Below, in pieces: positions 3,438-61,242 of a stretch of DNA of 64,000 nt. Source of the stretch: Fibrobacter sp. UWR2 (lineage in GTDB: Bacteria; Fibrobacterota; Fibrobacteria; Fibrobacterales; Fibrobacteraceae); contig NZ_MWQE01000001.1 in NCBI RefSeq assembly GCF_002210285.1, forward strand, positions 124,001 through 188,000, in the 5' to 3' direction. The stretch's first letter is position 1, and every line of letters begins with the position of its first letter. Both the position numbers and the translations under genes were made by a program. The notes under the pieces are model-generated. The model ran no database searches and was not told the origin of the DNA. It saw only the letters and a program-made list of their open reading frames with translations.

Positions 3438-4439
3438 CTACTTGGCGGTTGCCTTGCGCCCGTCCAACCATGCGAATATGTTAGCAAGAATCGTGCCGCT
3501 GATGGAATGGTAGATGCAGCTCAAAGCGCAGGGGACAACGCAGAGTGCCGCTTCGGGGTGAACTGCCAGGTTCTCGGGGTTAGCGAAGAACCCTGCAGCA
3601 AGGACTGTCGCCATGCCCGCGTTCTGCACGCCGACCTCGATGGCGATGGTGCGCTTCTTCGCGGTGTTGAACTTGAACAGCCTGCCTACGCTGTAACCCA
3701 GCACGTAGCCGAGCGCGTTGTGGCAGAACACGACCGCGAGCACGAGGAACAGGAGGCCGACCCCGTTGAGTACGAGCTGCGGGTGCACGGTCACCATCAC
3801 TCCGCCCACGATAAGCATGAGCCCGATGACACCGACCGCAGGCATGTTGGCCTGGATTTCCTTGAATACGGCGCGGTGCCCGAGAAATACGTTGAGGAGA
3901 AACCCGATGGTCACCGGGAGGATGGTGACGTAGAGGATGTTGAGGAACATCCCGAGGGCGTTCACGTTGATGCTCGTGTCGGCAAGCCACAGCACGAGCA
4001 GCGGGGTCATGATGGGGGCGAGCAGCGTGGAGACTGTGGTCATGCCTACGGAGTAGGCCACGTCGCCCTTCGCGAGGAAGCTCATGATGTTGCTGGAGAC
4101 GCCGCCCGGGCAGCAGCCTACGAGCACGATGCCCACGGCGAGGTAGGGGTCGAGCCCGAAAATCTTGGTGAGCGTGAAGGCCACCAGCGGCATGATGGTG
4201 TATTGTGCGACGGCCCCGAGCAAAATGTCGAGCGGGCGCTTGAACAGGATCTTGAAATCCTGTACGGAAAGCGTGAGCCCCATGCTCAGCATGATCACCC
4301 CGAGGATGACCGAGGAGACGTTCCCGTGGACCCAGCCGAAGGCTACGGGAACGAAGAATGCGACGATTGCGCTTGCGATGACGAACGGGGAAGCGTAGGC
4401 GGAAAGAGTGTGGCTCACGGCCCGGATAATCTTGGACAT
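3438..4439 (-). CDS. Bile acid:sodium symporter (BASS/SBF) family transporter
   Basis: A 333-residue inner-membrane protein with about nine to ten hydrophobic segments and the family hallmarks MLSMGLTLS and GCCPGGVSSNIMS. Members move organic anions (bile acids, pantothenate, pyruvate-like acids) with sodium; the substrate here is unknown. It lies upstream of dapF on the same strand with about 150 bases between, and two operator-like palindromes sit in that gap, so it is probably a separate transcription unit. A link to diaminopimelate or lysine metabolism would be only a guess from position. Confidence 0.88.
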   Translation of the reverse strand: MSKIIRAVSHTLSAYASPFVIASAIVAFFVPVAFGWVHGNVSSVILGVIMLSMGLTLSVQDFKILFKRPLDILLGAVAQYTIMPLVAFTLTKIFGLDPYLAVGIVLVGCCPGGVSSNIMSFLAKGDVAYSVGMTTVSTLLAPIMTPLLVLWLADTSINVNALGMFLNILYVTILPVTIGFLLNVFLGHRAVFKEIQANMPAVGVIGLMLIVGGVMVTVHPQLVLNGVGLLFLVLAVVFCHNALGYVLGYSVGRLFKFNTAKKRTIAIEVGVQNAGMATVLAAGFFANPENLAVHPEAALCVVPCALSCIYHSISGTILANIFAWLDGRKATAK

Positions 4440-4467: not shown

Positions 4468-6042
4468 CTAGCGAACGGCGACTCTACGCATGTAGCTTGT
4501 TCCCTTGGAACGAGCCCTTACGACGTAGACTCCACGGTCTGCCTTCTGCCACAGGAACTTGGCGCCGCGCGCTGCGGCAACCTTGTGCCCGTTCATGTCG
4601 TAGATGCTCCATTCGGCGTCTTCGGGCAGCGTAAGCAGGACGGAATGTCCGCTAATGGTCAGTCCGATGTTGTCGGCCTTTTGAGCCTGCGCCGCGGCCT
4701 TGATGGCGACAGTCTTGGTGAGCGACGAGGAATCTCCTGCAGTCGCTTCTTTCGGATTATCGATGGCGTCAATCACGTTCACGAAGGTTCCGCTCATCAT
4801 CGAGGCTCCGAACCAGGCGAGGAACTGGTCGAAATACATCTCGTTGTGGAGCGTGTCCTCGAGGGCGCCAGTCGTGTCCTTTGCAAGGCCGAAGTAGTCG
4901 CCGCCTTCGTAGAACTTCGCAAGTTCCTCGCTGAAGGCGATGCGGTCCTCGGATTTACCGACGGCGACGGCTGCGGTGGCCCACATGCCGATTGTCAGGT
5001 GGCTGTGTTCGCGGCGGTAGCGCCAGGTCGACGTGTCCTTGCTGTTGTTAAAGTCTGTCCAGATATCTTCGGCAGGCAGTAGTTCGCCGGGATTTTCGAT
5101 CTGGTAGAAGTTCGCGGCTTCGGGGCCGCCCTTTCCGTTGATGAATGTGAGCGAGTTCTCGAGGAATGCTTTTGCCCTGGACTCGTCGAACCAGACGGCG
5201 TCAATTGCGAGCCTCCACAGGATGCGGATGGCGTCCTTGAAGAAGGCGCGGCTGTTGAAATAGGCGTTGTAGCCGAGGCTTCCTGCCCAGCCACCATCGG
5301 GGCGCATCCAGTCGGGAATCATGCCCATGCTATAGCCGGGGCTCTTCGAAAGGATCTCGTAGGTCTTTTCGACAACCTTATTCCAGCGGTCGCCATTGCT
5401 ATCGAACTTGGCGAAAATCCTGTACCATGCCGGGGAAAAGTAGCCGGGATTCACGAAGCTGTCACCGCCCCAGCCCGCGCCGGGGGCCAGAATTCCGCTG
5501 CTCGTAATTTGCTGCGTTCCCCACATGCAGCCCAAAATCTTCTTGGCATGGTCTGCGTAGCCGTAATTGAACTTGGTCGAGGTATAGGGCTGCCATTTGC
5601 CGGCAGAAACTAGTTTGTCTGCAAAAATCAAGGCGAGCGCGACGTCTTCTTCGGCATCAGTTGCGGCGCCCTCGCCGCTAATCATGCCGCTAGGCGCCAT
5701 CTGCCAGTTGTAGTAGCAGCCGCCCCACATCTTGTCGTTCGCTGCATCCCAGATACTGTTGAAGTGATCCTGATCGTTGGCGAACAGGGCTACGAGCATG
5801 CCGTAGCCGACGGCTTCGCTTACCGCGTCACCCGGGGTTTCGCTCTTGGGACGGTGAATCAGCCCCTTGCCTTCAGAATAGGGATTGATGTTGCGGCGGA
5901 TAAGCCCTTGCCATGTGCTGTCGAGAGCCGCCTTCCAGTAGGATTCGTCTACCTTCGGTTGGGTGTTGGGCAAGTCCAGCACTGCCTGCGAGAAAGAGAA
6001 TGCCGCTGCAATGCAAAGGGGAATAAGATTAAGATTCTTCAT
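4468..6042 (-). CDS. Secreted glycoside hydrolase family 8 enzyme
   Basis: A 524-residue secreted enzyme. The signal peptide is about 1-20 (MKNLNLIPLCIAAAFSFSQA). The GH8 fold follows at about 30-430, with SEAVGYGML carrying the usual catalytic glutamate and ATDAEEDVALALI carrying the aspartate region of the family signature. GH8 enzymes cut beta-1,4-glucan, xylan or chitosan by inversion; cellulase or xylanase activity is likely here but not settled. The last 65 residues form a small beta-rich module (WSIYDMNGHKVAAARG, GVYVVRA) ending in the basic RRVAVR, which resembles the C-terminal sorting tails of type IX secretion substrates and is also seen on the other hydrolases in the window. A GGAGA ribosome site precedes the ATG, and a TATTATATAT element lies about 40 bases upstream. 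Confidence 0.9.
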   Translation of the reverse strand: MKNLNLIPLCIAAAFSFSQAVLDLPNTQPKVDESYWKAALDSTWQGLIRRNINPYSEGKGLIHRPKSETPGDAVSEAVGYGMLVALFANDQDHFNSIWDAANDKMWGGCYYNWQMAPSGMISGEGAATDAEEDVALALIFADKLVSAGKWQPYTSTKFNYGYADHAKKILGCMWGTQQITSSGILAPGAGWGGDSFVNPGYFSPAWYRIFAKFDSNGDRWNKVVEKTYEILSKSPGYSMGMIPDWMRPDGGWAGSLGYNAYFNSRAFFKDAIRILWRLAIDAVWFDESRAKAFLENSLTFINGKGGPEAANFYQIENPGELLPAEDIWTDFNNSKDTSTWRYRREHSHLTIGMWATAAVAVGKSEDRIAFSEELAKFYEGGDYFGLAKDTTGALEDTLHNEMYFDQFLAWFGASMMSGTFVNVIDAIDNPKEATAGDSSSLTKTVAIKAAAQAQKADNIGLTISGHSVLLTLPEDAEWSIYDMNGHKVAAARGAKFLWQKADRGVYVVRARSKGTSYMRRVAVR

Positions 6043-6494
6043 AACGTCTCCATTTTACCCAATCGCTCTCCGCTTCAAATATATAATAAAGGGGGCCGGC
6101 TCCCTGTAAAACTTTTGGTAACTGTGAAAGGAGTCACGCTAAAAAGCCAGTTTCCTTAGTGTAACTTGAGTTTTATCCTGCCTTGGAGAGGTCTTGTGCT
6201 CTTTGCCCTATGCGTCTGCCGTCTAATTGGAGCCGGAGAGTCTTGAACCTGCGGGTGAAGATGTGATTCATTGTCATATACTGTTTGTACAATCAAGTTG
6301 TTTGTGTGTACAAAAATCGTTAAATTACGTACAAAATAAAATTACAAACAAACTTTGTGTGTAACATGTTATTTTTCTTATATTATTCATGCGTTTTTAA
6401 CAAATGAATAATAACTATTTGCTTTAAAAACATTTAAAAATTGTTTGGCGAAAACTAGGCAATTCCCCTTGAACATTTACAACAAGAATAAAAC
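6043..6494. other. 452-base gene-free region, AT-rich toward the calpain gene
   Basis: Positions 6043-6100 hold the GH8 promoter and ribosome site (minus strand). From about 6280 the DNA is strikingly AT-rich and contains repeated TGTACA-like and TTTGTGTGTA words (6284-6367) and a perfect 10-base inverted repeat (6381-6390 with 6404-6413). At 6229-6256 a stretch resembles, on the minus strand, the 3' end of a tRNA or tmRNA, but its T-stem does not pair. No open frame with coding character was seen. This looks like the left border and promoter region of the calpain island. Confidence 0.5.
6381..6413. repeat. 10-base inverted repeat upstream of the calpain gene
   Basis: TATTATTCAT at 6381-6390 and its exact complement ATGAATAATA at 6404-6413, separated by 13 bases, about 80 bases ahead of the calpain gene. 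It could be an operator or an mRNA leader hairpin. It is too AT-rich and too far from a T tract to be called a terminator. Confidence 0.45.
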
Positions 6495-7703
6495 ATGAAA
6501 AAAGACAAGTATATCTCGAAAAGAAAGTTGATGAAACTGAAACCGAAGGATATGACATTCCGTGAATATAAGCTGGGCGCAGTCAGGGAAACGGAACACC
6601 CGAACTTTACTGAAAATGATATTAGTACTGCGATTAACCCATGCGCCCTTGCAGAACAAATCGAAGGCCGCAAGATTGATTGGGGTAATGATGAAGAACG
6701 TGAAAAGATGCTTGTGAAAATTCTTGGTGCGTCAAGTGTAAAAGACATTTATGACCCAAAAAAATCCTTTTTACGCCCAATTAGAAGGATGATTGATGCC
6801 TCCGGAAAGAGTGTGTTCAAAACATCGGATGTAGAAGAGAAAAGTATTCCGGAACAAATCGCTAGCGTCTATGTTCCGTTAAGGAATCGCGCGGCATCCG
6901 CAGAAATCAGTTTCAAGTCGGACGATTCCTGGCTACCCGAAAATGTCGGCTGGAAAAAAGTAGGTACCTATTATATTAACGGCGCGGAACCGCTTGAAAT
7001 TGACCAGGGTTCTCTAGGAGACTGCTATTTCTTGGCAGCACTGTGTTCTGCGGGATGGGTCAATAGGAACTACATAAGGAGTACCGATGTAAACGGCTCT
7101 CATACGATGACCTTCTATACGTGGCTAAAAAATCCGGAAAAGGTGTCCGTAAGTGAAGAAATTCCCTGCAATCTTTCGAGTAATCGACCTGCTTTTGGGG
7201 GCAGTACTACTACTGGGGAAATCTGGCCTGCCGTCTGGGAGAAGGCTTTTGCAAAATGGGACACCGGCTGTAGCCATGATCATCCCAATGTTTCGAAGAT
7301 TGCGGGGGGTAATGGCGGAACGGCATTAAGGCAAATTACGGGTAGGGGGTATTCCTCTTATTACCTGTATAACACTAAGAGTAGGATAAACACTATATGG
7401 GGGTGGCTTGACAAGAATACCAATTACTTGGGAAAGACGATGATCCCCATGGTTGTCAATACGTCTAGTATTGATAGGTATGATTCTCTTGGAATTGTTT
7501 CTAGCCATGTCTACTCGGTTCTGGGCATTGAAACCGTGAATAAGAAGAAACGAATCGTCTTGAGAAATCCGTGGGCGTGGAAAACCCCGAGTGAGTATTG
7601 TAGAACGGGCAGTTGGAATGGACTAGCGTTAGGTGCCAATGGGGTGTTCTCCATTGAGTTCGAAATGTTCCTTGAATATTTCTACAACCTATACTACGTG
7701 TAA
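6495..7703 (+). CDS. Calpain-type (C2 family) cysteine protease
   Basis: A 402-residue protein whose second half is a calpain-like papain-fold protease. The family signature QGSLGDCYFLAAL places the catalytic cysteine at residue 177, SSHVYSVLGIE gives the histidine at 338, and VLRNPW gives the asparagine at 358, so the triad is complete. Residues 1-160 are charged and unrecognised; they may be a regulatory or partner-binding region. No signal peptide, membrane segment or C-terminal sorting tail is seen, so the protein should stay in the cytoplasm unless exported by another route. Calcium-binding EF-hands are absent. The start ATG has only a weak purine stretch before it. Thirty-five bases after its stop begins a 1028-residue partner, so the two are probably one operon. 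Base composition is AT-richer than the flanking genes, suggesting acquisition by transfer. Confidence 0.85.
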   Translation: MKKDKYISKRKLMKLKPKDMTFREYKLGAVRETEHPNFTENDISTAINPCALAEQIEGRKIDWGNDEEREKMLVKILGASSVKDIYDPKKSFLRPIRRMIDASGKSVFKTSDVEEKSIPEQIASVYVPLRNRAASAEISFKSDDSWLPENVGWKKVGTYYINGAEPLEIDQGSLGDCYFLAALCSAGWVNRNYIRSTDVNGSHTMTFYTWLKNPEKVSVSEEIPCNLSSNRPAFGGSTTTGEIWPAVWEKAFAKWDTGCSHDHPNVSKIAGGNGGTALRQITGRGYSSYYLYNTKSRINTIWGWLDKNTNYLGKTMIPMVVNTSSIDRYDSLGIVSSHVYSVLGIETVNKKKRIVLRNPWAWKTPSEYCRTGSWNGLALGANGVFSIEFEMFLEYFYNLYYV

Positions 7704-7738
7704 AATCAACAAACAATAAATCAAAAAAAGGATAAAAA

Positions 7739-10700
7739 ATGGCAACTAAGACGTTGAAGACAGCAGATCTCAAGGCTTCCTTGAATTTGAAAAAGACTAC
7801 TAGGGTGGAGAACATCTCCGTTAAAGAAGTCAAGGGCGTTAGTGAAATAAAGACTGCAGCGGGTTCTAGGGTGCAGAAAGAACAGCTTTTGGACTTTAGG
7901 GAAAATGCTGGAATTTCGGTATTGGAACTAAGGGTTGATTCTACTAGCAAGACGCTTGATGACGTGAGGACTGAACTAGATGAAATAATTCGTCAAAAGG
8001 GAGAATTTCTTGATAAGAGGGACTACTTTGACGAAGGAAGGGCAAGAAGAGAACTACAGGAATCGCTTGATAACATAAAAAAATATGGAATGTCCGGTTT
8101 CACTGCAGAAGTGGACCCTGCAGGGGGCGTGACCTGCAAGTATGTGAGAATGTGGAGGCAGCCTGCTAGAAAGTATACGTATTCGCTTCTGCGAAAGAAA
8201 GAAGGCTTGAAGGTTATTGCTGTTAGAGGTGATAAACAACAGGCGACTGCCAAAAACGGAAGTTCCTCGATTACTAGTAAACTGAAGACGCTGGAGTGGG
8301 AAATATTAGTGCCGACGAGTACATCGCATATCGTAAATGGGTTTGTTCTTCATGATGATACGGCGGAGGAAGGCAACAAGTACACGTATCGGTTGGTCTT
8401 GAACTACACGGACACAAATGAGACGGAATCATTTGAGGCGACTGTCCTATACGAAAAATTAAAATTGAATGTTGTTGAATTCAGTGCTCGCGCGGATTCG
8501 ATCAATAAAAAGGTCGTGGTAACATGCAGCGTGCAAAACGCAAGTACGATGAAGGTTTATCGAAAGGACACGGGGAAGGTCTTGTCTAGCCCTTACGAAG
8601 ACACCAATGTTGAACTGGGTAAGACGTATGAATATGTTCTAGAGGCGGCCAACAAATGGGAATCTGTGAAAAAAACGGCTAAAGCCTCCTGCTCGAATCT
8701 TAAGCCGACTATGGGAAAGGTTACTGCGACGATAGAAACGTTTGACCGTGGCGTGACATTACAGTGGCCGTCTGTTGCGAATATTTCTTATTTTATCGTT
8801 GAGCGGTCTTTGTCGGGGACTAGTTCCTGGACAAAGGTTGGTTCTAATACAACTCAGAATACCTGTAAAGATATTGACGAATCGGAAGACGAAAAGGTCC
8901 TCAAGAAGGGGAAAACCTATGCATACAGGGTTACTGCTCACAATGGATGGGGCGATTCTTCGGCAACAGTTTCCGTAACCATGACCAATGCGGCTCCTAA
9001 TACGCCTCGAATTCTTGAACCGGGTTCAAATACATTGTGCTGGACCGCAATAAACAATGCGAAGACATTCCGCATTGAAAGAACCGATAATCCTTCGACG
9101 TATAATTGGACCAAGAAAACTGGGTACACTACGTTATACGACGGCAGTATTACGGCGGGAAAGCTGTACACGTACACAATTCAGGCCTGTAATGGATGGG
9201 GAAAGTCCGGCCTCTGCTATTGCGATGTCGTGAAGCCGATAACGGAAAATAAAGGAAAGGTGGGTGATTATTATGGGTATATTGGACAGAATAAAGATGA
9301 TGATTACGGTGGAAATTTTGCGAAAAAGTGGCAACTCAATTTCCAGGGAATAACGACGGATGGAACGTGGTGGTATATAACGAATGGTGCTGATGGGTGG
9401 TACCATTCTATAAGAAAACGTTCTCTGGATAGAACATTGGATAGTGGAATCGGTCGTGACTACACGGTGCCTGATGAAGCCCATGTAGGAGACCTCGATT
9501 TCTATAAGGGCTATCTATTTGTTCCTGTGTATAAGAGTGGGGAAAACGGCAAGATATGGATTTTCAAAACAGATAAGAGCAACAGCTGCGTCCAAAGCAG
9601 CGATAGGCTTAAATGTATTGAATTGCATAAGAATAATGGTTCCTCCTTTAAAAAACTTGGATGGTGTGCCGTAAACCCCTGTGACGGCAGACTGTATGTT
9701 TGCGAGGGAGATGAAGCCCTTGGACCGAATGCTCCGCTCTATTCATTCAAGGTTAATGTGGATAATATCAAGAATGCAAAATGGGACAATGTATTTGTAG
9801 ACCCCAAGGTGGTGCGCCTGTATCTTAGCGATGGATCCGAATGCGTGAAGCAATGCATGCAGGGAGGATGCTTTGATTACTACAACAACCTTTATCTCAA
9901 TAGTGGCTATTCGGACGGCCACAGAACAGGTGAAGGTGTCCATGTATTCAAGCTGATTCGTGACGATTCAAAACAGCTTAGAGAAAAGTTGAGCGCCGCT
10001 CGAAATGACGAAGAACGTGCTAAAATCTACGAGGCGTATAAATCGGGCGACCTGAATTTGCCATTTGACTGCACTAAGGGTATACTTATTGCACAGTCAA
10101 ATCAAAAGTCGGGATTCAGGTATCAGTTTGACCCCACCGATGATGAGGAGCCGGAGGGCATGATGTATTATGACTTTACATTTGCCGAAAGGACGCCTCC
10201 GCAGAGTTATGTGGGTGAAGGTTCTCTTCATATCGGTATGTTGATGAATGATATAGCGACAGAGGAATGCGTGTGCTTTAAACACTATGCTCACAAGCTC
10301 CGTGATACTGAAGAGAAAAATGTCTACTACAATCCTTCAAATCTGGTAGTTGTTTCTGCTACCGAAAACAATGATGGTGTAAACGAAACTGTATATAAAG
10401 TTGTCGATAACGGCGTTCTTGTGAAGAAGTTTAAACTGAGAAAATATGCGGATGCCGCTTTGACTATATTGAAAAAATTCAGCAAGGTCCATACGGTAGG
10501 CTGGCTTTATACGTGTTCGCCAAATCATAATTATGAATTTAGCGCTCTTGAAAGCAGTACGTCATTGCCTAAAACGCAATGTGTACAGATGGCATATACT
10601 AGTGTCGTTAAAAGCCATGCGACTGATGAAATGTGGAAGGTGGAAGTACGGTCGAGTCAGGGAGTCCTGTGTCACTTCCGCGCTCATAATGAAGCGGATG

Positions 10701-10825
10701 CGAATACGATACAGGCTATTCTGAAACAGCATAAAAAACTTTGCTATATAGGAGTGGGGCCTGATACCGATGCTAAAACCAAGGGATTTTTCCGTAGTGC
10801 AAACAACTTGATTTGGCTCGAGTAA
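7739..10825 (+). CDS. Large Fn3-like repeat / propeller-like protein, calpain partner
   Basis: A 1028-residue protein not recognised as a named family. Residues 1-120 are charged and helical with no signal peptide. From about 130 to 490 there are repeated Fn3-like (immunoglobulin-type) units, each ending in a Y-x-Y strand: YTYRLVL near 216, YEYVLEA near 297, YAYRVTA near 394 and YTYTIQA near 477, the last two followed by NGWG. Residues about 500-760 contain spaced aromatic strands (GTWWYITNG, GDLDFYKGYLFVPVY, DGRLYVCEGD, YNNLYLNSGY) that suggest a beta-propeller. The C-terminal 250 residues are unassigned. A GGATAAAAA ribosome site precedes the ATG. The gene follows the calpain gene by 35 bases and ends at a strong hairpin. 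It could be the substrate, scaffold, target-recognition subunit or inhibitor of the protease; the sequence alone does not decide. Confidence 0.7.
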   Translation: MATKTLKTADLKASLNLKKTTRVENISVKEVKGVSEIKTAAGSRVQKEQLLDFRENAGISVLELRVDSTSKTLDDVRTELDEIIRQKGEFLDKRDYFDEGRARRELQESLDNIKKYGMSGFTAEVDPAGGVTCKYVRMWRQPARKYTYSLLRKKEGLKVIAVRGDKQQATAKNGSSSITSKLKTLEWEILVPTSTSHIVNGFVLHDDTAEEGNKYTYRLVLNYTDTNETESFEATVLYEKLKLNVVEFSARADSINKKVVVTCSVQNASTMKVYRKDTGKVLSSPYEDTNVELGKTYEYVLEAANKWESVKKTAKASCSNLKPTMGKVTATIETFDRGVTLQWPSVANISYFIVERSLSGTSSWTKVGSNTTQNTCKDIDESEDEKVLKKGKTYAYRVTAHNGWGDSSATVSVTMTNAAPNTPRILEPGSNTLCWTAINNAKTFRIERTDNPSTYNWTKKTGYTTLYDGSITAGKLYTYTIQACNGWGKSGLCYCDVVKPITENKGKVGDYYGYIGQNKDDDYGGNFAKKWQLNFQGITTDGTWWYITNGADGWYHSIRKRSLDRTLDSGIGRDYTVPDEAHVGDLDFYKGYLFVPVYKSGENGKIWIFKTDKSNSCVQSSDRLKCIELHKNNGSSFKKLGWCAVNPCDGRLYVCEGDEALGPNAPLYSFKVNVDNIKNAKWDNVFVDPKVVRLYLSDGSECVKQCMQGGCFDYYNNLYLNSGYSDGHRTGEGVHVFKLIRDDSKQLREKLSAARNDEERAKIYEAYKSGDLNLPFDCTKGILIAQSNQKSGFRYQFDPTDDEEPEGMMYYDFTFAERTPPQSYVGEGSLHIGMLMNDIATEECVCFKHYAHKLRDTEEKNVYYNPSNLVVVSATENNDGVNETVYKVVDNGVLVKKFKLRKYADAALTILKKFSKVHTVGWLYTCSPNHNYEFSALESSTSLPKTQCVQMAYTSVVKSHATDEMWKVEVRSSQGVLCHFRAHNEADANTIQAILKQHKKLCYIGVGPDTDAKTKGFFRSANNLIWLE

Positions 10826-10828
10826 CAA

Positions 10829-10860
10829 AAAAGGCCGCGGTTCTAAAACCGCGGCCTTTT
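10829..10860. terminator. Bidirectional terminator between the calpain operon and pgi
   Basis: Perfect 14-base inverted repeat AAAAGGCCGCGGTT - CTAA - AACCGCGGCCTTTT between two convergent genes. A-runs and T-runs flank both sides, so it can stop transcription from either direction. Confidence 0.92.
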
Positions 10861-10873
10861 CTTTAGTCAAGTT

Positions 10874-12538
10874 TTAAGCCTGGTGAGCCTTGAACCACTT
10901 GATGAGCCCGTTGGTGGAGCTGTCGTGGTTCAGTTCGGCGTCGGCCTTGGCGAGTTCCGGAAGGATCTTCTTCGCGAGCTGCTTGCCGAGTTCAACACCC
11001 CACTGGTCGTAGCTGTTGATGTTCCAGATAACGCCCTGCGTGAAGATCTTGTGTTCGTACATGGCGATGAGGGCGCCGAGCGTTTCCGGAGAAACGTAGT
11101 CCATCATGATGGAGTTGGTCGGCTTGTTGCCTTCGAACACCTTGTGCGGGGCGAGGAATGCGATTTCTTCTTCGCTCTTGCCGTCCTTGCGGAGTTCTTC
11201 CTGAGCCTGGGCGAGCGTCTTACCGTTCATCAAGGCTTCGGGCTGTGCAAAGAAGTTGGAGAGCAGCTTCTGGTGATGGTCGCCGACCTTGTTGTGGCTG
11301 TTTGCCGGGGCGATGAAGTCGCACGGAATCATCTTGGTGCCCTGGTGGATGAGCTGGTAGAAGGCGTGCTGGCCGTTGGTGCCCGGTTCGCCCCAGAGGA
11401 TCGGACCGGTCTGGTAGTCGACGCGCAGGGAGTCGCGGTCGACAGTCTTGCCGTTGGATTCCATGTCGGCCTGCTGGAAGTAAGCGGCGAGGCGGTGCAG
11501 GTACTGGTCGTACGGGAGCATCGCGTAGCTGGAAGCGCCGAAGAAGTTGTTGTACCACACGCCGATGAGGGCGAGGATCACCGGCAGGTTCTTGTCGGCC
11601 GGAGCGGTCTTGAAGTGCTGATCCATTTCGTAGGCGCCCTGATGGAGCTTCATGTAGTTTTCGAAGCCGATGCGGAGCGCGATGGAAAGGCCGATGGCAG
11701 ACCACAGGGAGTAGCGGCCGCCGACCCAGTTCCAGAATTCGAACATGTTGGCAGTGTCGATACCGAAGGCAGCAACGGCTTCGGTGTTGGTGGAGAGCGC
11801 CACGAAGTGCTTGGCGATGGACTTCTCGTCGCCGTTGAATGCCTTGAGCACGGCAGCCTTGGCAGTTTCGGCGTTGGTCATGGTTTCAAGAGTGGTGAAT
11901 GTCTTGGAAGCGACGATGAAGAGCGTCTCCTCGATGTTCACCTTCTTGAGGGTTTCGGCCATGTGGGTGCCGTCGATGTTAGAAACGAAGTAGACTTCCG
12001 GGGAGTATTCGCCGGCAATCGGCTTGTCGGCATACGGCTTCAAAGCTTCGGTAACCATCACCGGACCGAGGTCAGAACCGCCGATACCGATGTTCACCAC
12101 GTACTTGATGGACTTGCCGGTGTGGCCTTTCCACTTGCCGCTGCGGACGAGGTGGGTAAAGTCTTCCATGTGCTTGAGAACCGCGCGGACTTCGGGCATC
12201 ACGTCCTTGCCATCGACGCAAATCGCCTCATTGCCCTTGTAGCGCAGAGCGGTGTGGAGCACGGCGCGCTTTTCGGTGGTATTAATCTTTTCGCCGGCGA
12301 AGTACTTCTTGCGCATGTCGTCGAAGTTTGCGGACTTCAGGAGGTCCTGGAGCTTCGCCATGGTTTCGTCGGTGATGATGTTCTTGGAGTAGTCGAGGAA
12401 CAGGCCGCAGGCTTCGGCGCTGAACTTGTCGGCGCGGGTCGGGTCCTTCGCGAAGAGTTCCTTCATCTGCCAGGTCTTGGCGACTTCGGCATGGGCCTCG
12501 AGGGCCTTCCATTCCTTAGAATCAGTCAGTTTAGACAT
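10874..12538 (-). CDS. pgi: Glucose-6-phosphate isomerase
   Basis: Interconverts glucose 6-phosphate and fructose 6-phosphate in glycolysis. At 554 residues it is full length. Diagnostic stretches are [14 protein letters not shown] in the phosphate-binding region, [13 protein letters not shown], and [19 protein letters not shown] near the C-terminal active site. It ends at a hairpin shared with the convergent calpain operon and diverges from the HD hydrolase gene at 12612. The N-terminus reads [16 protein letters not shown] with a purine-rich GGAAAGGATTAAT stretch before the ATG. Confidence 0.97.
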
Positions 12539-24424: not shown

Positions 24425-24514
24425 TTTGTGTTTTTGTAGGTATTTTTGTAGATGTATGGGACGCGGGTCTTTTTTTGGTGGGTGGACTCGTGGCTCTTGA
24501 AAAAAGGAGCTGTT

Positions 24515-26746
24515 ATGAAATTCAGTTGTGGTGTTGCAACTTCTTTTCTGGTAGTGGGTCTTGCCACCTACGGTTTGGCAGATAACCCTATCTCATCTTA
24601 TCACTATCTGGCAGACCCCTCTTGCGCTTCCGATGGTGACACCTTCTACATTTTGACTGACGTCGATGACTACAACAACCAGACCAACTGGAACTACGAC
24701 ATCGTCGGCCTTTATGCCTTTACGTCCGAAGATATGAAAAACTGGACCGACCACGGCATGATTTTCCGTTCCAAGCGCGAATTCGGCAACTATCCGAGCA
24801 ATACTTGGGCATCGGGCATTGCCGTCAAGGATGGTAAGGTCTATATCGTTTACCCTGATGGCGCAAGTGGCGTGGGCATGATTACCGCCCCGGCTATCGA
24901 TGGCCCTTATACTGACCCTGTTAAGGAAACTCATGGTGTCAATAGAATTGCAGGTGGCGGTAGCTTGATTGGCAGCTGCGATGGCATTGCGCACTGCTTT
25001 GACCCGGGCATCTTGATTGATGATGACGGTAAGGGTTACGTGATTTTCGGTGGTGGTGAAAGCTCCAGCCGTCCGTATGGCAACAACTTTGACATTATCA
25101 GTTTTACCGAAAGCAATGGCAAGATTACTTTCGACAAGAACTCCTTGAAGAAGGTCTCTTTGCCGAACTCCTTCGAAGCTCCGTACTTGCACAAGAAGGG
25201 CAGCACTTATTACTTGAGCTTCAACAACCGTAGCCAGGTGATTGACTATGGTATGTCCAACAATATTTGGGGGCCCTATACCTTTGTGGGCACGGTCATT
25301 CCGGGAATCGGCTCTGTGCCTGATGCTCATGGCGAAGGTGGCAACAACCACCAGGGCTTCGCTCCGTTCAAGGACAAGTGGTATGCAGTTTACCACGACC
25401 GTCGCCTGGTGACTTCCGACAACCACCCGGCCGCAACGACGCAGGCTGGCGTGCGTTCCGAAAACCCGAACTACGAAAACCACAGAAGCGTGTCCATCGA
25501 CGAACTCACCTGGAGTGGCGACAAGATGAACAAGCTGACCTTCACGCGTGAAGGCCCGAAGCAGATCAAGAATTTTGATCCGTACAAGACCTACAAGGCG
25601 ACTACGAGTTCCAAGCAGATGAATATCCGTAGCCGTACCGATTGGACGAAGGGCCAGCCGGTGAAGCACGTGCTTCTGCCGCTCACGAGCCGTAGCGAAT
25701 CCTGGATCCGCGTCTCTGGTGTGGACTTCGGTAATGGTGCCGAGAACCTCCGCATCAAGGCCGCGAACGTGGGCGACGGCAACAAGATTGAAATTCATAA
25801 GGGCAGTGCCACCGGTACGCTTGCCGGTACTTGCGAACTGGCAAAGACCAGCAACAACATGACATTCACCGATAACGACTGCGCCATGACGGGCCTGAGC
25901 GGTGTCGTGGACCAGCTGTTCTTCGTGTTCAAGAACAATGGCAAGGATTCCACCATGGGCATTCTCGAATGGGAATTCCAGGGCACCAAGCGCGAGCCTG
26001 AACCGCAGCAGCCGTTTGGCGGCAAGGCATGGGCCATTCCGGGCAAGATCGAGATGGAAAATTTCGATGAACCGGGTTACGGTGCGGGTAACGATTCTTA
26101 CGCTGACAATGATACCGATGACCATGGCGCCGAAACCAACGGTGGCAAGAGCTACCGCGAAGGCACGGGGGTAGACATCTACAAGAAGGCGACCGGCTAC
26201 GTTGTAGGCTACAACCAGACCGGCGAATGGCTCGAATACACTGTGGAAGTTGCCGAAGCAGGCGATTACACCATGTTTGCCGCCGTCGCCTCTGCCAATG
26301 CGACCTCCAGCTTCCAGCTCTCTATCGATGGCGAGAACATTACCGGCGAAGTCGCTGTTCCGCAGGCCAGTGCCGGCGAAGAAAACTACGACGACTACAA
26401 CAAGGTCAAGGAAAACGTGACGCTCACTGCGGGCAAGCATATCCTCCGCTTCACCGTGACCGGCGACTGGATGGATATTGACTACATCAACTTCGTGAAG
26501 GGCAAGGACGCCGAAGATTCCGACCCGATCGGAGGACCGTCTGCGCTCGGGAACAAGGTTGCGTTTAAGGCCCTGCAGTACACCACCTACCGTGTGTTTG
26601 GCTTGAATGGTGCAATGCTTGGCAAGGTCGACTTGAACGGCGCTAACGTTTCCGAAGCGCTTAAGGCCGCAGGCTACAAGAAGGGCGTCTACATGCTCCA
26701 GCAGGTCGAAGGTGGCAAGAAGTTTATGGCCAAGGTGACGAAATAA
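24515..26746 (+). CDS. Secreted GH43 enzyme with two CBM6-like modules (copy 1)
   Basis: A 743-residue enzyme, probably an arabinofuranosidase or beta-xylosidase acting on arabinoxylan. The signal peptide is about 1-22 (ends LATYGLA). The GH43 five-blade propeller covers about 24-360, with the base aspartate in HYLADPS, the middle aspartate in CFDPGILIDDDG and the acid glutamate in FEAPYLHKKG. A first CBM6-like module is at about 385-500 and a second at about 520-655 (KIEMENFDEPG, GEWLEYTVEV, DWMDIDYINF). The end, GVYMLQQVEGGKKFMAKVTK, is a sorting-type tail. The ATG at 24515 follows AAAGGAG; the longer frame has no such site. Two close paralogues follow. Confidence 0.9.
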   Translation: MKFSCGVATSFLVVGLATYGLADNPISSYHYLADPSCASDGDTFYILTDVDDYNNQTNWNYDIVGLYAFTSEDMKNWTDHGMIFRSKREFGNYPSNTWASGIAVKDGKVYIVYPDGASGVGMITAPAIDGPYTDPVKETHGVNRIAGGGSLIGSCDGIAHCFDPGILIDDDGKGYVIFGGGESSSRPYGNNFDIISFTESNGKITFDKNSLKKVSLPNSFEAPYLHKKGSTYYLSFNNRSQVIDYGMSNNIWGPYTFVGTVIPGIGSVPDAHGEGGNNHQGFAPFKDKWYAVYHDRRLVTSDNHPAATTQAGVRSENPNYENHRSVSIDELTWSGDKMNKLTFTREGPKQIKNFDPYKTYKATTSSKQMNIRSRTDWTKGQPVKHVLLPLTSRSESWIRVSGVDFGNGAENLRIKAANVGDGNKIEIHKGSATGTLAGTCELAKTSNNMTFTDNDCAMTGLSGVVDQLFFVFKNNGKDSTMGILEWEFQGTKREPEPQQPFGGKAWAIPGKIEMENFDEPGYGAGNDSYADNDTDDHGAETNGGKSYREGTGVDIYKKATGYVVGYNQTGEWLEYTVEVAEAGDYTMFAAVASANATSSFQLSIDGENITGEVAVPQASAGEENYDDYNKVKENVTLTAGKHILRFTVTGDWMDIDYINFVKGKDAEDSDPIGGPSALGNKVAFKALQYTTYRVFGLNGAMLGKVDLNGANVSEALKAAGYKKGVYMLQQVEGGKKFMAKVTK

Positions 26747-26808
26747 GGCCAAAAAGAGTCCCTAAACACCACACATCCAGACCGACGCCTTTTTCGGCGT
26801 CATGAAAG

Positions 26809-26837
26809 TACCCCGGGATTTCCCGAGGTGCTTTTTT
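26809..26837 (+). terminator. Terminator after GH43 copy 1
   Basis: Hairpin with stems CCCCGGGA / TCCCGAGG and a T6 tract, about 60 bases after the stop. A second small stem (GACGCC / GGCGTC) lies just before it at 26784-26801. Confidence 0.75.
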
Positions 26838-26850
26838 ATTAATGCAACTA

Positions 26851-26865
26851 TGGACAATACGTCAA
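26851..26865 (+). promoter_or_regulatory. Dyad TGGAC-AATAC-GTCAA upstream of GH43 copy 2
   Basis: A member of the shared dyad set. Its centre (26858) is 56 bases before the TATAGA element at 26914-26919, exactly the spacing seen in front of GH43 copy 3. Position and symmetry suggest an activator site upstream of the core promoter. Confidence 0.6.
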
Positions 26866-26927
26866 TGCTATTTGCTCGGGGAAGGATGAAAATCGGGCTT
26901 TTGGGGGTTAAATTATAGAATGGTGAA

Positions 26928-26945
26928 GACTGTAATGGTGCGGTC
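26928..26945 (+). promoter_or_regulatory. 5'-end stem-loop of the GH43 copy 2 mRNA
   Basis: GACTGT-AATGGT-GCGGTC can form a six-pair stem. It begins about where transcription should start after the TATAGA element and ends 18 bases before the ATG. The stem of copy 3 has different bases but the same shape and loop start (AATGG). Confidence 0.45.
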
Positions 26946-26963
26946 TTTAAAAGGGATGTTAAG

Positions 26964-29201
26964 ATGAAAAAGATTTCCAAGGGAAAGCTTGGTTTAGCGC
27001 TTGCGTTTGGCCTTGCGGCATCAGCGCTTGCCGATAACCCGATTTCTACCTACCATTACTTGGCGGACCCCGGTGCGGCTGCTGATGATGATTACTTCTA
27101 CATCATTACCGACTCCGACGACCCGGCTCCGTACAACTCCGACGGCTACAAGATTTACGCCCTCTATGCATTCCGCAGTAAGGATATGCAGAACTGGACC
27201 GACTACGGCATCATTTATGATGCCCGCAAGGTGAACGGCATTAACGACATTTGGGCATCCGGCATTGCCGTGCACAACGGAACGTTCTACATCGTGTTCC
27301 CCGATGGCGGTGGCGGTGGTATCGGCTACATCAAGGCGCCTGCTATTGACGGCCCGTGGACAAACGCCGTGGGCCAGGGCAAGGACAAACTGGTTGGTGG
27401 CCGCGGTATCATCGGTTGCGACGGCGTCTCGTGGTGCTTCGACCCGGGTATCTTTATCGATGACGATGGCACGACCTACGTCACGTGGGGCGGTGGTGAA
27501 AGCAATAGCCGTCCGAATACCGACAACTTCGATATCGTCAAACTGAACGATGCGAAGGATGCCCCGGTGGGTAACGGTTCCCACGTGAAGGTGAATAACC
27601 TCCCGACCCGTAAGATGCTCGAGGCGTCTTACATCCACAAGCACGGGAGCAATTACTACTTCTCGTACAGTACCGGCTGGCAGCAGGGGGCGCCTACCAT
27701 TGACTACGGTATGTCCAACAACGTGATGGGACCGTACACCTGGAAGGGCACGATTCTCGGCGACCCGAGCATGAACGGCCGTAGCATCAACGGTAACAAC
27801 AACCATCACGGTATTGCCGAATTCAAGGGGCATTCCTATGTGGTGTACCATGACCGCCGTATCGCGAAGGGACATAACGGACTTGAAATTATTCCGGCCG
27901 ACGACGGCAAGCCGAACCCGAACGAAGGCTATCACCGCAGTGTTTCCGTAGACGAAATGTTCTACAATAACGATGGCACTATCAAGACTGTTACGGTGAC
28001 GAACGAAGGCCCGAAGCAGATCGAGAACTTCGACCCATACGACTGGTATCCGGCACTCACGAGTTCTAAGCAGAAGGGCATCCGCAGTCGTTCCAATTTT
28101 GTGCAGGGCAAGAAGGCCGAACACGTGCTGATTCCGCTTTCCAGTAAGGAAGCCTGGATTCGCGTGAGTGGCGTGGACTTCGGTACCGCGGCGACGGGCT
28201 TTACGGTCGAGGCATCAAGTGCTGCCGACGGCAACAAGATTGAAATCCGCACGGGTTCTGCCACGGGTACGCTCGCAGGCACCTGCACGCTCAAGAATAC
28301 CGGCAACAAGAATACCTACGCCGAGAACAAGTGCGAAGTCGAAGGCCTCAAGGGCATCGTGAACCAGCTGTTCCTCGTGTTCAAGGGCAACCAGGATTCT
28401 ACCATGTACGTGAAGGCCTGGGGCTTCGAGGGCAGTGGCACTACGCCTCCGGAACCGCAGAAGCCGTTTGGCGGCAAGGCCTGGGCGATCCCCGGCAAGA
28501 TCGAGATGGAAAACTTTGACGAACCGGGTACGGGCCGTGGTGCAGGTGTCGATTCTTACAGCGACAACGATATGGACGACCATGGCGCCGAAAGCAACGG
28601 CGGCAAGAGCTACCGCGAAGGTACTGGCGTCGACATCTACAAGAAGGCTACCGGCTACGTGGTGGGCTACAACCAGGCTGGCGAATGGCTTGAATACACG
28701 GTGAATGTGGCTAAGGATGGCGACTACACGATGTTTGCCGCCGTGGCTTCTGCCAATGCGACCTCCGGCTTCCAGCTGTCTATCGATGGCGAGAACATCA
28801 CCGATGAGATTGCCGTACCTCAGGCAACCTCCGGCGAAGATAATTACGACGACTACAACAAGGTTTCTGCCAACGTGAAACTGACCGCCGGCGAGCACAT
28901 CCTCCGCTTCACCGTCACTGGCGACTGGATGGACATCGACTACATCAACTTTGTCGAAGGCAAGGATGCGGAAGATTCCGACCCGATTGGAACGACTTCC
29001 CTCCAGAACAAGGTTGCGTTCAAGGCCGGTCAGTACGAAAGCTATCGCGTGTTTGACCTGAAGGGTTCCCTGGTTGGCCAGATCAACTTGAAGGGCGCGA
29101 AAGTGGGCGAGGCCCTCCGTGCTGCAGGCTATGCGAAGGGCGTTTACATGCTCCGCGCCTTTGAAGGTGGCAAAAAGTTTATGGCTACGGTCTCTGAATA
29201 G
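26964..29201 (+). CDS. Secreted GH43 enzyme with two CBM6-like modules (copy 2)
   Basis: A 745-residue paralogue of the preceding enzyme. The signal peptide ends at ASALA (about residue 24). The GH43 catalytic residues lie in HYLADPG, CFDPGIFIDDDG and MLEASYIHKHG. The first CBM6-like module is at about 370-495 and the second at about 510-650; the second is nearly identical in sequence to that of copy 1, which suggests gene conversion or recent duplication. The tail, GVYMLRAFEGGKKFMATVSE, is the sorting type. AAAAGGGA stands before the ATG. Likely role: removing arabinose or xylose side groups from xylan outside the cell. Confidence 0.9.
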   Translation: MKKISKGKLGLALAFGLAASALADNPISTYHYLADPGAAADDDYFYIITDSDDPAPYNSDGYKIYALYAFRSKDMQNWTDYGIIYDARKVNGINDIWASGIAVHNGTFYIVFPDGGGGGIGYIKAPAIDGPWTNAVGQGKDKLVGGRGIIGCDGVSWCFDPGIFIDDDGTTYVTWGGGESNSRPNTDNFDIVKLNDAKDAPVGNGSHVKVNNLPTRKMLEASYIHKHGSNYYFSYSTGWQQGAPTIDYGMSNNVMGPYTWKGTILGDPSMNGRSINGNNNHHGIAEFKGHSYVVYHDRRIAKGHNGLEIIPADDGKPNPNEGYHRSVSVDEMFYNNDGTIKTVTVTNEGPKQIENFDPYDWYPALTSSKQKGIRSRSNFVQGKKAEHVLIPLSSKEAWIRVSGVDFGTAATGFTVEASSAADGNKIEIRTGSATGTLAGTCTLKNTGNKNTYAENKCEVEGLKGIVNQLFLVFKGNQDSTMYVKAWGFEGSGTTPPEPQKPFGGKAWAIPGKIEMENFDEPGTGRGAGVDSYSDNDMDDHGAESNGGKSYREGTGVDIYKKATGYVVGYNQAGEWLEYTVNVAKDGDYTMFAAVASANATSGFQLSIDGENITDEIAVPQATSGEDNYDDYNKVSANVKLTAGEHILRFTVTGDWMDIDYINFVEGKDAEDSDPIGTTSLQNKVAFKAGQYESYRVFDLKGSLVGQINLKGAKVGEALRAAGYAKGVYMLRAFEGGKKFMATVSE

Positions 29202-29249
29202 CCCAAAGCTGCGTTTTTTTAAGCAAAAAAAGACGATTTAGACATTAGA

Positions 29250-29280
29250 AACGTCCCAGACGTCGTTCTGGGATGTTTTT
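29250..29280 (+). terminator. Terminator after GH43 copy 2
   Basis: ACGTCCCAGA - CGTCG - TTCTGGGATGT followed by a T run, about 50 bases after the stop codon. Confidence 0.85.
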
Positions 29281-29287
29281 GCCGTTA

Positions 29288-29302
29288 TGGATAAAAAGTC
29301 AA
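29288..29302 (+). promoter_or_regulatory. Dyad TGGAT-AAAAA-GTCAA upstream of GH43 copy 3
   Basis: Identical over 18 bases to the site in front of the TIGR02147 gene. Its centre is 56 bases before the TATAGA element at 29351-29356 and 107 bases before the ATG. Confidence 0.6.
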
Positions 29303-29363
29303 TGGAATGTGCCTTTTTGAGGGTAAAAAGAGCCCCTTTTAGGGGTAGATTATAGAATGCAAA

Positions 29364-29381
29364 AGCCGTAATGGAACGGTT
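29364..29381 (+). promoter_or_regulatory. 5'-end stem-loop of the GH43 copy 3 mRNA
   Basis: AGCCGT-AATGGA-ACGGTT forms a six-pair stem beginning at the expected transcription start, 20 bases before the ATG. Compared with copy 2, stem positions differ on both sides while pairing is kept. Confidence 0.45.
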
Positions 29382-29401
29382 TTATAAAAGGGATGTGTAA
29401 A

Positions 29402-31597
29402 ATGAAGATGAATCATAAGGGAATATTTGGACTTGCCCTCATGGGTGGCCTCGTTGGGGTGGCGCTTGCCGATAACCCGATTTCCAGTTACCATTATCTG
29501 GCTGACCCGGGTGCAGCCGCTGACGATACGTATTTCTATGTCATTACCGACTCCGATGACCCGGCGGCATACAACGCAAACGGCTACAGCATCAAGGCCC
29601 TTTACGGTTTCCGTACTAAGGACATGAAAAACTGGACCGATTTCGGTATCATTTACGATGCGCGCAAGGTGGACGGTATCGGCGATATCTGGGCGTCTGA
29701 CATTGCCGTGAACCCCAAGGACGGAAAGCTCTACATCGTGTTCCCCGATGGCGGTGGCGGCGGTGTGGGCCTCATCTCTGCTGACAGCATTGCCGGCCCG
29801 TGGACGAACCCGGTTTCGGGCGGCAAGAAGCTCATCAACAACTGGGGCGGCGGCCTTGCGGACTGCGACGGCATCGGCTGGTGCTTTGACCCGGGTATTT
29901 TCTTTGATGACGACGGCACGGGCTACTTCACCTTTGGTGGCGGTAGCAGCGATAGCCGTCCGGCTGCCGACAATAACAACGACATCTTCAATATCTACAA
30001 GTTCAACTCCGACATGAAGGGCTTTGATGTGAGTTCCAAGACTCACCTGAAGATCGGTGGCCCGAAGGCGATGGAAGCTTCTTACATCCACAAGTACAAG
30101 GGCAACTACTATCTCTCTTACAGTACGGCCGACTTGCGTATTGCCTACGGCATGTCCGATAAACCCATGGGCCCGTACACCTACAAGGGCATCTTCATGG
30201 GGAACCCGAACATCAATGGCCAGAACATCAACGCGAACAACAATAACCACCATGGCATTGCCGAATTCAAGGGCCACTGGTACGTCGCCTACCATGACCG
30301 TCGCATTGCGAACGGATACGACGGCCTCGAAAAGATTCCTGCCGAAGATGGACAGGCGAATCCGAACCCGGCATACCACCGCAGCGTGAGCGTAGATGAA
30401 TTCACCTATGCAGCCGATGGTTCCATGAACTCGTTGACTTTCACGAAGGAAGGCCCGAAGCAGATAGAAAACTTCGATCCGTATGACTGGTATCCGGCTC
30501 TCACGAGCTCCAAGCAGAAGGGCATCCGTAGCCGTTCCAACTGGAGCTTGGGCAAGGTGGCTGAACATCTCCTTCTCCCGCTTTCTACGAAGGAATCCTG
30601 GATCCGCGTGAGTGGCGTTGACTTCGGTACTGCCGCGACGGGCTTCGTGGTGCAGGCAGCAAGCACTGCCGATGGCGACAAGATTGAAATCCACACGGGT
30701 TCTGCGACGGGTACGCTCGCCGGCACCTGCACGATTAAGAATACCGGCAACAAGAATACCTTTGCCGAGAATTCCTGCGAAGTCACTGGCCTCAAGGGAA
30801 TCGTGGAACAGGTGTTCCTCGTGTTCAAGGGCAGCAGGGATTCTACCATGGCTATTAAGGCCTGGGGCTTCGAAGGCAGCGGCACGACTCCGCCCACTCC
30901 GCAAACTCCGTATGGCGGCACGGCCGTGACGCTTCCGGCGAAGATTGAGGCTGAAAATTACGACGTTCCGGGTACGGGCCGCGGCGGCGATGTCGATTCC
31001 TACAACGACAACGATTCCGAAAATCAGGGCGATGCTAAGTTCCGCGAAGACTTGGGTGTCGACATTGTGGAAGGCGGCACCGGCAAGGCAATCGGTTACA
31101 CGGCTTCCGGTGAATGGCTTGAATACACTGTCAACGTATCTGAAGATGGCGAGTATGCCATTAAGGCATCCGCTTCTACCGGCATGGAAAACGGTGCAAG
31201 TTTCTGCCTGCTTGTTGATGGAAAGCTTGTTGGCGATACCATCAAGGTTCCGCAGACGGGCGAGGACTGGAGCGTATATAAGGAATTTGAAGGCGGCAGC
31301 GCCCAACTCACCAAGGGTGAACACATCATCCGTCTGCTCATTACGAGCGACAACGTGAATGTGGACTGGTTCTCTCTCGGGAATGTCGAGACCATCGGGA
31401 TTGTCCCGACCAAGTTCCAACATGCTTCTGCGAAGGCATACGACGTGTTTGGCCTTACCGGAAAGAAACTCGGTACGGTTGATCTCTCTGCAGGGAGTGC
31501 CGCGGAGGTCTTGAAGGCTGCCGGATTTGGGCAGGGCGTCTACATGCTCCGCTCCGTAGCCGGCAACAAGAAATTCATGGTATCTACTGCAAAGTAA
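29402..31597 (+). CDS. Secreted GH43 enzyme with two CBM6-like modules (copy 3)
   Basis: A 731-residue paralogue. The signal peptide ends VGVALA (about residue 22). The GH43 catalytic motifs are HYLADPG, CFDPGIFFDDDG and AMEASYIHKYKG. The first CBM6-like module matches copies 1 and 2, but the second (about 510-650, with GKAIGYTASGEWLEYTVNVS and NVNVDWFSLG) is of a different CBM6 subtype. The sorting-type tail ends MLRSVAGNKKFMVSTAK. The ATG at 29402 is preferred over 29393 because it gives the same AAAGGGA-to-start spacing as copy 2. Confidence 0.9.
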   Translation: MKMNHKGIFGLALMGGLVGVALADNPISSYHYLADPGAAADDTYFYVITDSDDPAAYNANGYSIKALYGFRTKDMKNWTDFGIIYDARKVDGIGDIWASDIAVNPKDGKLYIVFPDGGGGGVGLISADSIAGPWTNPVSGGKKLINNWGGGLADCDGIGWCFDPGIFFDDDGTGYFTFGGGSSDSRPAADNNNDIFNIYKFNSDMKGFDVSSKTHLKIGGPKAMEASYIHKYKGNYYLSYSTADLRIAYGMSDKPMGPYTYKGIFMGNPNINGQNINANNNNHHGIAEFKGHWYVAYHDRRIANGYDGLEKIPAEDGQANPNPAYHRSVSVDEFTYAADGSMNSLTFTKEGPKQIENFDPYDWYPALTSSKQKGIRSRSNWSLGKVAEHLLLPLSTKESWIRVSGVDFGTAATGFVVQAASTADGDKIEIHTGSATGTLAGTCTIKNTGNKNTFAENSCEVTGLKGIVEQVFLVFKGSRDSTMAIKAWGFEGSGTTPPTPQTPYGGTAVTLPAKIEAENYDVPGTGRGGDVDSYNDNDSENQGDAKFREDLGVDIVEGGTGKAIGYTASGEWLEYTVNVSEDGEYAIKASASTGMENGASFCLLVDGKLVGDTIKVPQTGEDWSVYKEFEGGSAQLTKGEHIIRLLITSDNVNVDWFSLGNVETIGIVPTKFQHASAKAYDVFGLTGKKLGTVDLSAGSAAEVLKAAGFGQGVYMLRSVAGNKKFMVSTAK

Positions 31598-31634
31598 ACC
31601 AGAAAAGAGTCCCTAAACCACACATCCAGAAACG

Positions 31635-31662
31635 ACACCCTCGGGCAAACGTCCGAGGGTGT
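31635..31662 (+). terminator. Terminator after GH43 copy 3
   Basis: Perfect 10-base stem ACACCCTCGG / CCGAGGGTGT with an 8-base loop, followed by a T-rich stretch. Confidence 0.8.
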
Positions 31663-31778
31663 TGTTTTGTTGTCATTTTTGGAGTTTTTCCGCTCTTGTC
31701 CGTTGCCAAAACGTAAAAGGAAAATATTGCGTTTTATGGTAAAAAATGCCTTCCAACAGGTATCTTTATAGTATGGGA

Positions 31779-31792
31779 CCGCAATCCTGCGG
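31779..31792 (+). promoter_or_regulatory. 5'-end stem-loop of the GH30 mRNA
   Basis: CCGCA-ATCC-TGCGG begins 7 bases after a TATAGT element (31767-31772), i.e. at the expected first base of the mRNA, and lies 27 bases before the ATG. Confidence 0.4.
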
Positions 31793-31819
31793 ATTTCTGT
31801 TTGGAAAAATAGGGCTAGT

Positions 31820-59291: not shown

Positions 59292-59388
59292 CGAATCATT
59301 TTGCGGAGGGCGATCCATAAAGCCTTGTGGAGAATAAATTCCATATTAGGCCGTTATTGGAAGTGTCGGCCAAAAAAAGGATGTGGAT

Positions 59389-61167: not shown

Positions 61168-61201
61168 TCATCGACCAGTAAAGTTCATCCTTTAGAGACG
61201 G

Positions 61202-61233
61202 GTCCCGAAACGAGAGTTTCGGGGCTCTTTTTT
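61202..61233 (+). terminator. Terminator after GH10 copy 2
   Basis: GTCCCGAAAC - GAGA - GTTTCGGGGC followed by a long T run, 35 bases after the stop. Confidence 0.92.
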
Positions 61234-61242
61234 TTAGCCTCA

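What the first reader, a model, noticed from the sequence alone, without database searches (positions are those of the whole stretch)
6495..10825. Calpain protease paired with a large Fn3/propeller protein in an AT-rich island
Seen: a complete calpain triad (C177, H338, N358) in a protein without signal peptide, followed 35 bases later by a 1028-residue protein with Fn3-like repeats and propeller-like strands, also without signal peptide. The pair is AT-richer than both neighbours and ends at a strong terminator. Known: bacterial calpain-like proteases are scattered and little studied, and proteases paired with a large partner occur in defence, toxin and self-killing systems. Inference: this is a two-component protease system in which the large protein is substrate, activator, inhibitor or target sensor. 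I know of no described system of this architecture.
Basis: partly seen in the sequence, partly recalled or inferred. Interest (0 to 1): 0.78.

Follow-up and report, generated by a model that had tools for sequence, protein, structure and literature searches.

The report
Fibrobacter calpain–scaffold gene pair
A gut-type Fibrobacter carries, in a chromosomal slot that changes content from species to species, a calpain-type protein-cutting enzyme next to a large protein built of four fibronectin-type domains and a propeller; the pair recurs in one other species but its parts also occur apart, so it looks like a swappable protease-and-scaffold module of unknown target rather than an obligate two-part machine.

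Summary
Window 6495-7703 encodes a calpain (Peptidase_C2, E 1.4e-21) with C177/H338/N358 and Q171. The 1028-aa partner at 7739-10825 has about four Fn3 domains (119-502), a propeller-like region (509-855) and no signal peptide. They are the two most AT-rich ORFs of 200 aa or more in the window.

The genome is Fibrobacter. Among 80 Fibrobacter genomes, 10 have this calpain family and 4 the full Fn3-propeller protein. They are adjacent in two, at unrelated sites. One species (G018) has the large gene in the same slot, behind the same promoter region (83% over 92 bp), without the calpain. So the pair is real but separable. The "strong terminator" is the conserved pgi terminator, and the pgi 3' end is a hypervariable slot that elsewhere holds restriction-modification, TOTE, AbiD and DUF4062 genes.

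Relatives show a modular family: the same Fn3 array is fused to caspase-like domains, and those share a C-terminal beta-module with longer calpains. No Fibrobacter genome has T6SS TssC, and the phage collections gave no hit.

Best reading: a cytoplasmic, conflict-type protease-plus-recognition-scaffold module (about 0.4). Substrate, activation and any interaction are untested.

The parts
6495..7703 (+). Calpain-type cysteine protease, 402 aa. Residues about 46-125 form a conserved N-terminal region shared by all Fibrobacter calpains found; catalytic core about 143-402. No EF-hand or CBSW domain and no C-terminal beta-module.
7005..7025 (+). Active-site motif QGSLGDC: oxyanion-hole Gln171 (codon 7005-7007) and nucleophile Cys177 (codon 7023-7025)
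   Evidence: sequence; both residues invariant
7506..7568 (+). Catalytic His338 (7506-7508) and Asn358 (7566-7568)
7739..10825 (+). Fn3/beta-propeller protein, 1028 aa, no signal peptide
8093..9244 (+). About four Fn3-like domains (aa 119-502); homologous to the Fn3 array of caspase-like proteins in G015, G033, G052, G054 and G127
9263..10303 (+). Beta-propeller-like domain (aa about 509-855); found alone, with PLAT domains, or behind a signal peptide in other Fibrobacter
6338..6429 (+). Upstream promoter-side region, 83% identical over 92 bp to the region directly upstream of the large gene in G018 (which lacks the calpain)
10829..10860 (.). Bidirectional hairpin terminator; it is the conserved pgi terminator, not part of the cassette
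10874..12538 (-). pgi (glucose-6-phosphate isomerase); its 3' end is the hypervariable insertion slot
3438..4439 (-). BASS-type transporter, the other conserved flank of the slot (directly next to pgi in G003, the empty site)
4468..6042 (-). GH8 glycosidase with signal peptide, divergent from the calpain; directly next to pgi in G059

Best explanation
The pair is a swappable conflict-type module in a hypervariable chromosomal slot. A cytoplasmic calpain-type protease is made together with a large Fn3-propeller protein that most likely works as the recognition or assembly scaffold. The scaffold binds something (a phage or rival product, or an altered self protein) and brings substrate to the calpain or licenses it. 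Shown: calpain homology with an intact active site; Fn3 plus propeller-like architecture; no signal peptide; recurrence in a second species at another site; the same slot and promoter region in a third species driving the large gene alone; 42-45% protein identity between species whose pgi is about 96% identical; the same Fn3 array fused to a caspase-like domain elsewhere. Inferred: cytoplasmic location, physical or functional interaction of the two proteins, the conflict role, and the direction of activation.
For: Calpain. Fn3 and propeller. Pair in G001 at another site. Patchy: calpain in 10 of 80 and large protein in 4 of 80 Fibrobacter, calpain in 11 of 168 in the phylum. Slot variability and an empty site (BASS next to pgi in G003). 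The same slot holds Eco47II R-M, TOTE primase-helicase and DUF4062 in G037, and AbiD and TOTE-like genes in G047, with duplicated pgi ends alongside; DUF4062 is reported as an antiphage NADase family (PMC13174449). R-M genes also lie within about 10 kb of calpains in G004 and G070. Fast divergence: calpain 42% and large protein 45% to G001 against about 96-97% for pgi. Protease swapping: Fn3 array plus caspase-like domain, and a C-terminal module shared by long calpains and those caspase-like proteins at 1e-11 to 1e-15 without iteration. Cys content 1.5-2.2%, like non-secreted proteins, whereas secreted propeller homologues have 0-0.3%. TssC absent in 80 genomes.
Against: No PADLOC model matches either protein. 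No defence gene is adjacent in the window. The slot also carries many ordinary lipoproteins and glycosidases, so slot content alone does not prove a conflict role. Relatives' partner domains (PLAT, DUF6765, DUF285) are also compatible with action outside the cell. The pair is separable. The cysteine argument is weak (Mann-Whitney P 0.05). Calpain model confidence is low (pLDDT 44.8).
Confidence: 0.4

Rival explanations
1. Effectors released by an unknown route or by lysis: the calpain and the Fn3-propeller protein belong to a suite of signal-less multidomain proteins (PLAT, DUF6765 phospholipase-like, DUF285, DUF6603, papain-like) that act on other cells in the gut.
For: Relatives sit beside DUF6765 phospholipase-like and DUF285 proteins in G056, G070 and G126 and in a run of large signal-less proteins in G122. 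Fn3, PLAT and propeller domains are common in surface proteins. Some bacterial calpains are fused to toxin or secretion domains (PMC4631099).
Against: No signal peptide in the multidomain members; TssC found in 0 of 80 Fibrobacter genomes; the only sheath protein in this genome lies in a Mu-like prophage without these genes; no match in phages or viral contigs.
Confidence: 0.28
2. Incidental neighbours: two unrelated accessory genes that share a taste for the same variable slots, with no joint function.
For: Large gene without calpain in G018 and G067, calpain without large gene in G003 and in all long-clade genomes. In G001 a 262-bp AT-rich gap separates them. The calpain lies between the large gene and a promoter region that serves the large gene alone in G018.
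Against: Adjacent, same order and same strand in both genomes that carry both, at unrelated sites. The chance of an overlap of 2 or more between 3 short-clade calpains and 4 large genes in 80 genomes is about 0.006 (my arithmetic). The short clade is the only calpain clade found with the partner.
Confidence: 0.25
3. Ordinary intracellular protein turnover or cell-surface adhesion genes with a housekeeping role.
For: Calpains in eukaryotes do limited proteolysis of cell proteins (established knowledge); the genus depends on adhesion to plant fibre.
Against: Present in only 10 of 80 (calpain) and 4 of 80 (large protein) species, fast diverging, AT-rich and in a variable slot.
Confidence: 0.07

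Closest known systems
Bacterial calpain homologues, MEROPS family C2 (Rawlings 2015, PMC4631099)
   Same: Catalytic Cys-His-Asn core, no EF-hand or CBSW domains, mostly without signal peptide (63 of 66 in that survey), rare and patchy within a genus.
   Different: The survey text does not mention Fibrobacter, fibronectin, propeller or operon; here there is a genus-specific N-terminal region, an Fn3-propeller neighbour and, in relatives, a C-terminal module shared with caspase-like proteins.
Protease-effector pairs in antiphage immunity (trypsin-like protease with MBL nuclease, PMC12799240)
   Same: A protease gene next to a partner gene, exchanged between loci.
   Different: Calpain instead of trypsin-like fold; the partner has no recognisable enzyme domain; no PADLOC system attached; no activity data.
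Fn3-caspase-like proteins of Fibrobacter (L058, L059, L060, L062, L122)
   Same: Homologous Fn3 array (25-29% identity to the large protein over about 290-450 aa), no signal peptide, in slots also used by calpains.
   Different: Protease domain is caspase-like (Pfam C14 near the cut-off) and is on the same chain as the Fn3 array.

Membership tests
Peptidase family C2 (calpain) catalytic domain | Sequence match to the family above the curated cut-off | tested here: met
   PF00648, 77.3 bits against 23.8
Peptidase family C2 (calpain) catalytic domain | Catalytic Cys, His, Asn and oxyanion Gln | tested here: met
   C177, H338, N358, Q171
Peptidase family C2 (calpain) catalytic domain | Calpain protease-core fold | tested here: inconclusive
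   Model of low confidence (pLDDT 44.8); the only Foldseek matches at E 0.001 or better are calpains (best 5e-5); best Z 4.2 over 110 residues, below a safe level
Peptidase family C2 (calpain) catalytic domain | Proteolytic activity; calcium dependence | not testable with these tools
   needs an enzyme assay
Classical eukaryotic calpain | CBSW (C2-like) and penta-EF-hand domains after the protease core | tested here: not met
   No further Pfam domain; the chain ends 44 residues after Asn358
Fn3 protein | Tandem Fn3 domains | tested here: met
   Profile hit to titin Fn3, E 1.3e-15; structure alignment 119-502
Beta-propeller protein | Propeller fold in 509-855 | tested here: inconclusive
   Z 11-12.6 to two propellers with rmsd about 4 over 171-180 residues, but part of the model has low pLDDT
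Known antiphage defence systems (PADLOC-DB 2.0.0) | Match to a defence protein model | tested here: not met
   No match at E 0.01 for either protein
T6SS effector | T6SS in the genome | tested here: not met
   PF05943 (TssC) in 0 of 80 Fibrobacter genomes, own genome included; E. coli control positive
Protease-activated two-component immune pair | Partner is cleaved or activated by the protease | not testable with these tools
   no complex prediction or assay available

The most novel reading that the evidence does not exclude
Fibrobacter species carry an undescribed family of conflict modules in which a common Fn3 recognition scaffold is coupled to exchangeable death-type proteases: a caspase-like domain on the same chain in some species, a separate calpain in others, with the propeller as the specificity part. 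This would be a bacterial protease-based immunity or self-killing system using a calpain.
Probability: 0.25. Interest if true: 0.78.

Novelty: new variant of a known kind. Interest (0 to 1): 0.5.

Why it matters
As far as I know, bacterial calpains have no established role. This locus gives a small, defined setting to test one: a short clade of calpains with a specific neighbour, natural species with and without the calpain at the same site behind the same promoter region, and sister proteins in which the same scaffold carries a caspase-like protease. It also exposes the pgi 3' end as a slot whose content, including defence genes, turns over between Fibrobacter species.

Tried and rejected
Contractile injection: the only sheath hit in the genome lies in a Mu-like prophage, and TssC is absent from 80 genomes. 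Phage or plasmid carriage: no phage or viral-contig match and one weak plasmid match in Calothrix (30.8%). Known defence families: none. NCBIfam: none. A shared regulatory motif upstream of all family genes: no convincing k-mer, only the window/G018 pair. A leftover pgi duplicate beside the window pair: none beyond chance. Gene tree of the large proteins: order within the four not resolved, so co-descent of the pair could not be tested. Structure of the calpain: low confidence, used only as a weak check. sigma-70 scan: not above shuffles. Literature: no paper on DUF6603 and none relevant on Fibrobacter calpain.

Full report
Observation. The first is a calpain by Pfam (E 1.4e-21) and by comparison with solved calpains (calpain-8, 3.8e-10). 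In an alignment of 12 Fibrobacter calpains C177, H338 and Q171 are invariant and N358 is kept in 11. The second has an Fn3 array (profile hit to titin Fn3, 1.3e-15; structure alignment over 119-502) and a region 509-855 that aligns to beta-propellers (Z 11-12.6, rmsd about 4). Neither has a signal-peptide-like segment (a simple hydrophobicity scan). They are the two lowest-GC ORFs of 41 in the window. The hairpin after the second gene is strong but it is the pgi terminator, present in species without the pair.

Where it is. The genome is a Fibrobacter: the nearest named record with the calpain is F. succinogenes MAG RUG13674, which is G001. The pair lies between GH8/BASS/dapF and pgi. G003 has BASS directly beside pgi and G059 has GH8 directly beside pgi, so empty sites exist. 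What follows pgi differs in most species examined. In G037 and G047 duplicated pieces of the pgi 3' half bracket cargo or lie beside it; the cargo includes an Eco47II-type R-M system, a TOTE primase-helicase, a DUF4062 protein and AbiD. In G018 the large gene stands alone between pgi and BASS, with a 48-bp perfect pgi remnant on its far side.

Recurrence. Of 80 Fibrobacter genomes, 10 carry the calpain family and 4 the full Fn3-propeller protein. The two are neighbours in the window genome and in G001, at different chromosomal sites; in G001 the site is beside a tRNA-Arg and an HD-domain gene. The calpains form two well-supported clades: a short one (window, G001, G003), two of whose three members have the partner, and a long one (nine genes in the tree, seven genomes in all) that never has it. 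With 3 and 4 carriers among 80, an overlap of two or more has a chance of about 0.006 (my arithmetic), but both genes favour the same kind of slot, so adjacency alone is not proof of joint function. G018 is the sharpest comparison: same slot, and 92 bp upstream of its large gene are 83% identical to the region upstream of the window calpain. The calpain has therefore been gained or lost between promoter and large gene.

A modular family. The Fn3 array of the large protein is also found fused to a caspase-like domain in G015, G033, G052, G054 and G127 (Pfam C14 in four of five members, best 7.8e-5). Most of those proteins end in a beta-module of about 90 residues that also ends the long-clade calpains of several species (non-iterated profile, 1e-11 to 1e-15). 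After iteration the module also appears in DUF6603 and other large proteins of G122, a weaker claim. The propeller occurs alone, behind PLAT domains, or behind a signal peptide. Calpains and Fn3-caspase proteins occupy the same slot beside a FIST-GGDEF-HD gene in different species.

How it most likely works. Shown: an intact protease core, a large beta-rich partner, no export signal, no T6SS TssC in the genus, patchy distribution, and divergence (42-45% identity to G001) far above that of pgi (about 96%). The cysteine content of the signal-less members resembles that of non-secreted proteins, while secreted propeller homologues have almost none; the background difference is weak (P 0.05). From these I infer a cytoplasmic protease-plus-scaffold module used in biological conflict, with the scaffold as the recognition part. 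Which of the two acts on the other, and what the substrate is, is not known. The main rivals are release by an unknown route, favoured by neighbours such as DUF6765 and DUF285 proteins in other species, and incidental adjacency.

Comparison with the known. It is a member of the bacterial calpains by sequence and active site. The published survey (PMC4631099) describes mostly simple, signal-less, patchy bacterial calpains and has no word of Fibrobacter, fibronectin or operons. It does not match any PADLOC defence model. Protease-partner pairs are known in antiphage immunity (PMC12799240), which shows that such logic exists, not that this pair uses it.

Verdict.

Noticed in passing
window 10874-12538 (pgi); L172, L173, L055, L174: The pgi 3' end is a hypervariable insertion slot in Fibrobacter. 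Duplicated pgi fragments accompany cargo in G037 and G047 (R-M, TOTE, DUF4062, AbiD), and pgi is split across contigs near residues 464-517 in many assemblies.
   Followed up: partly
L058:7989-12692 (same in L059): Tandem Fn3-caspase-like genes in which the downstream copy has lost the His and Cys motif residues (MFSVFCNSD, DAHFRGS instead of MFYAHGGVD, SACHSGS): probably an active-inactive pair.
   Followed up: no
L118-L120 (G122:C1 about 874000-907000): A run of large signal-less proteins next to the HD-domain gene that also flanks the G001 pair: PLAT-propeller, PLAT-papain-like, DUF6603 (2177 aa) and 1197, 1539 and 639 aa proteins without a Pfam family above cut-off.
   Followed up: partly
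L067, L069, L121: Long-clade calpains in an operon-like row with DUF6765 (phospholipase-like) and DUF285 repeat proteins; in L121 one protein of 2492 aa carries many PLAT-like repeats.
   Followed up: partly
L063:7619-8740 and L068:11438-12550: Radical SAM/SPASM genes beside a PLAT-propeller gene and near two calpains.
   Followed up: no
L069:17161-19000 and L064:13896-17219: EcoRII-type R-M and a type I HsdR-like gene within about 10 kb of calpains in G070 and G004.
   Followed up: partly
window 24452-33889 and 59383-63225: Tandem paralogous secreted proteins that look like GH43-, GH30- and GH10-type glycosidases (judged by eye).
   Followed up: no
G000:C4 about 8000-36000 (L074-L075): A Mu-like prophage with a contractile tail sheath in the window's own genome.
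   Followed up: no
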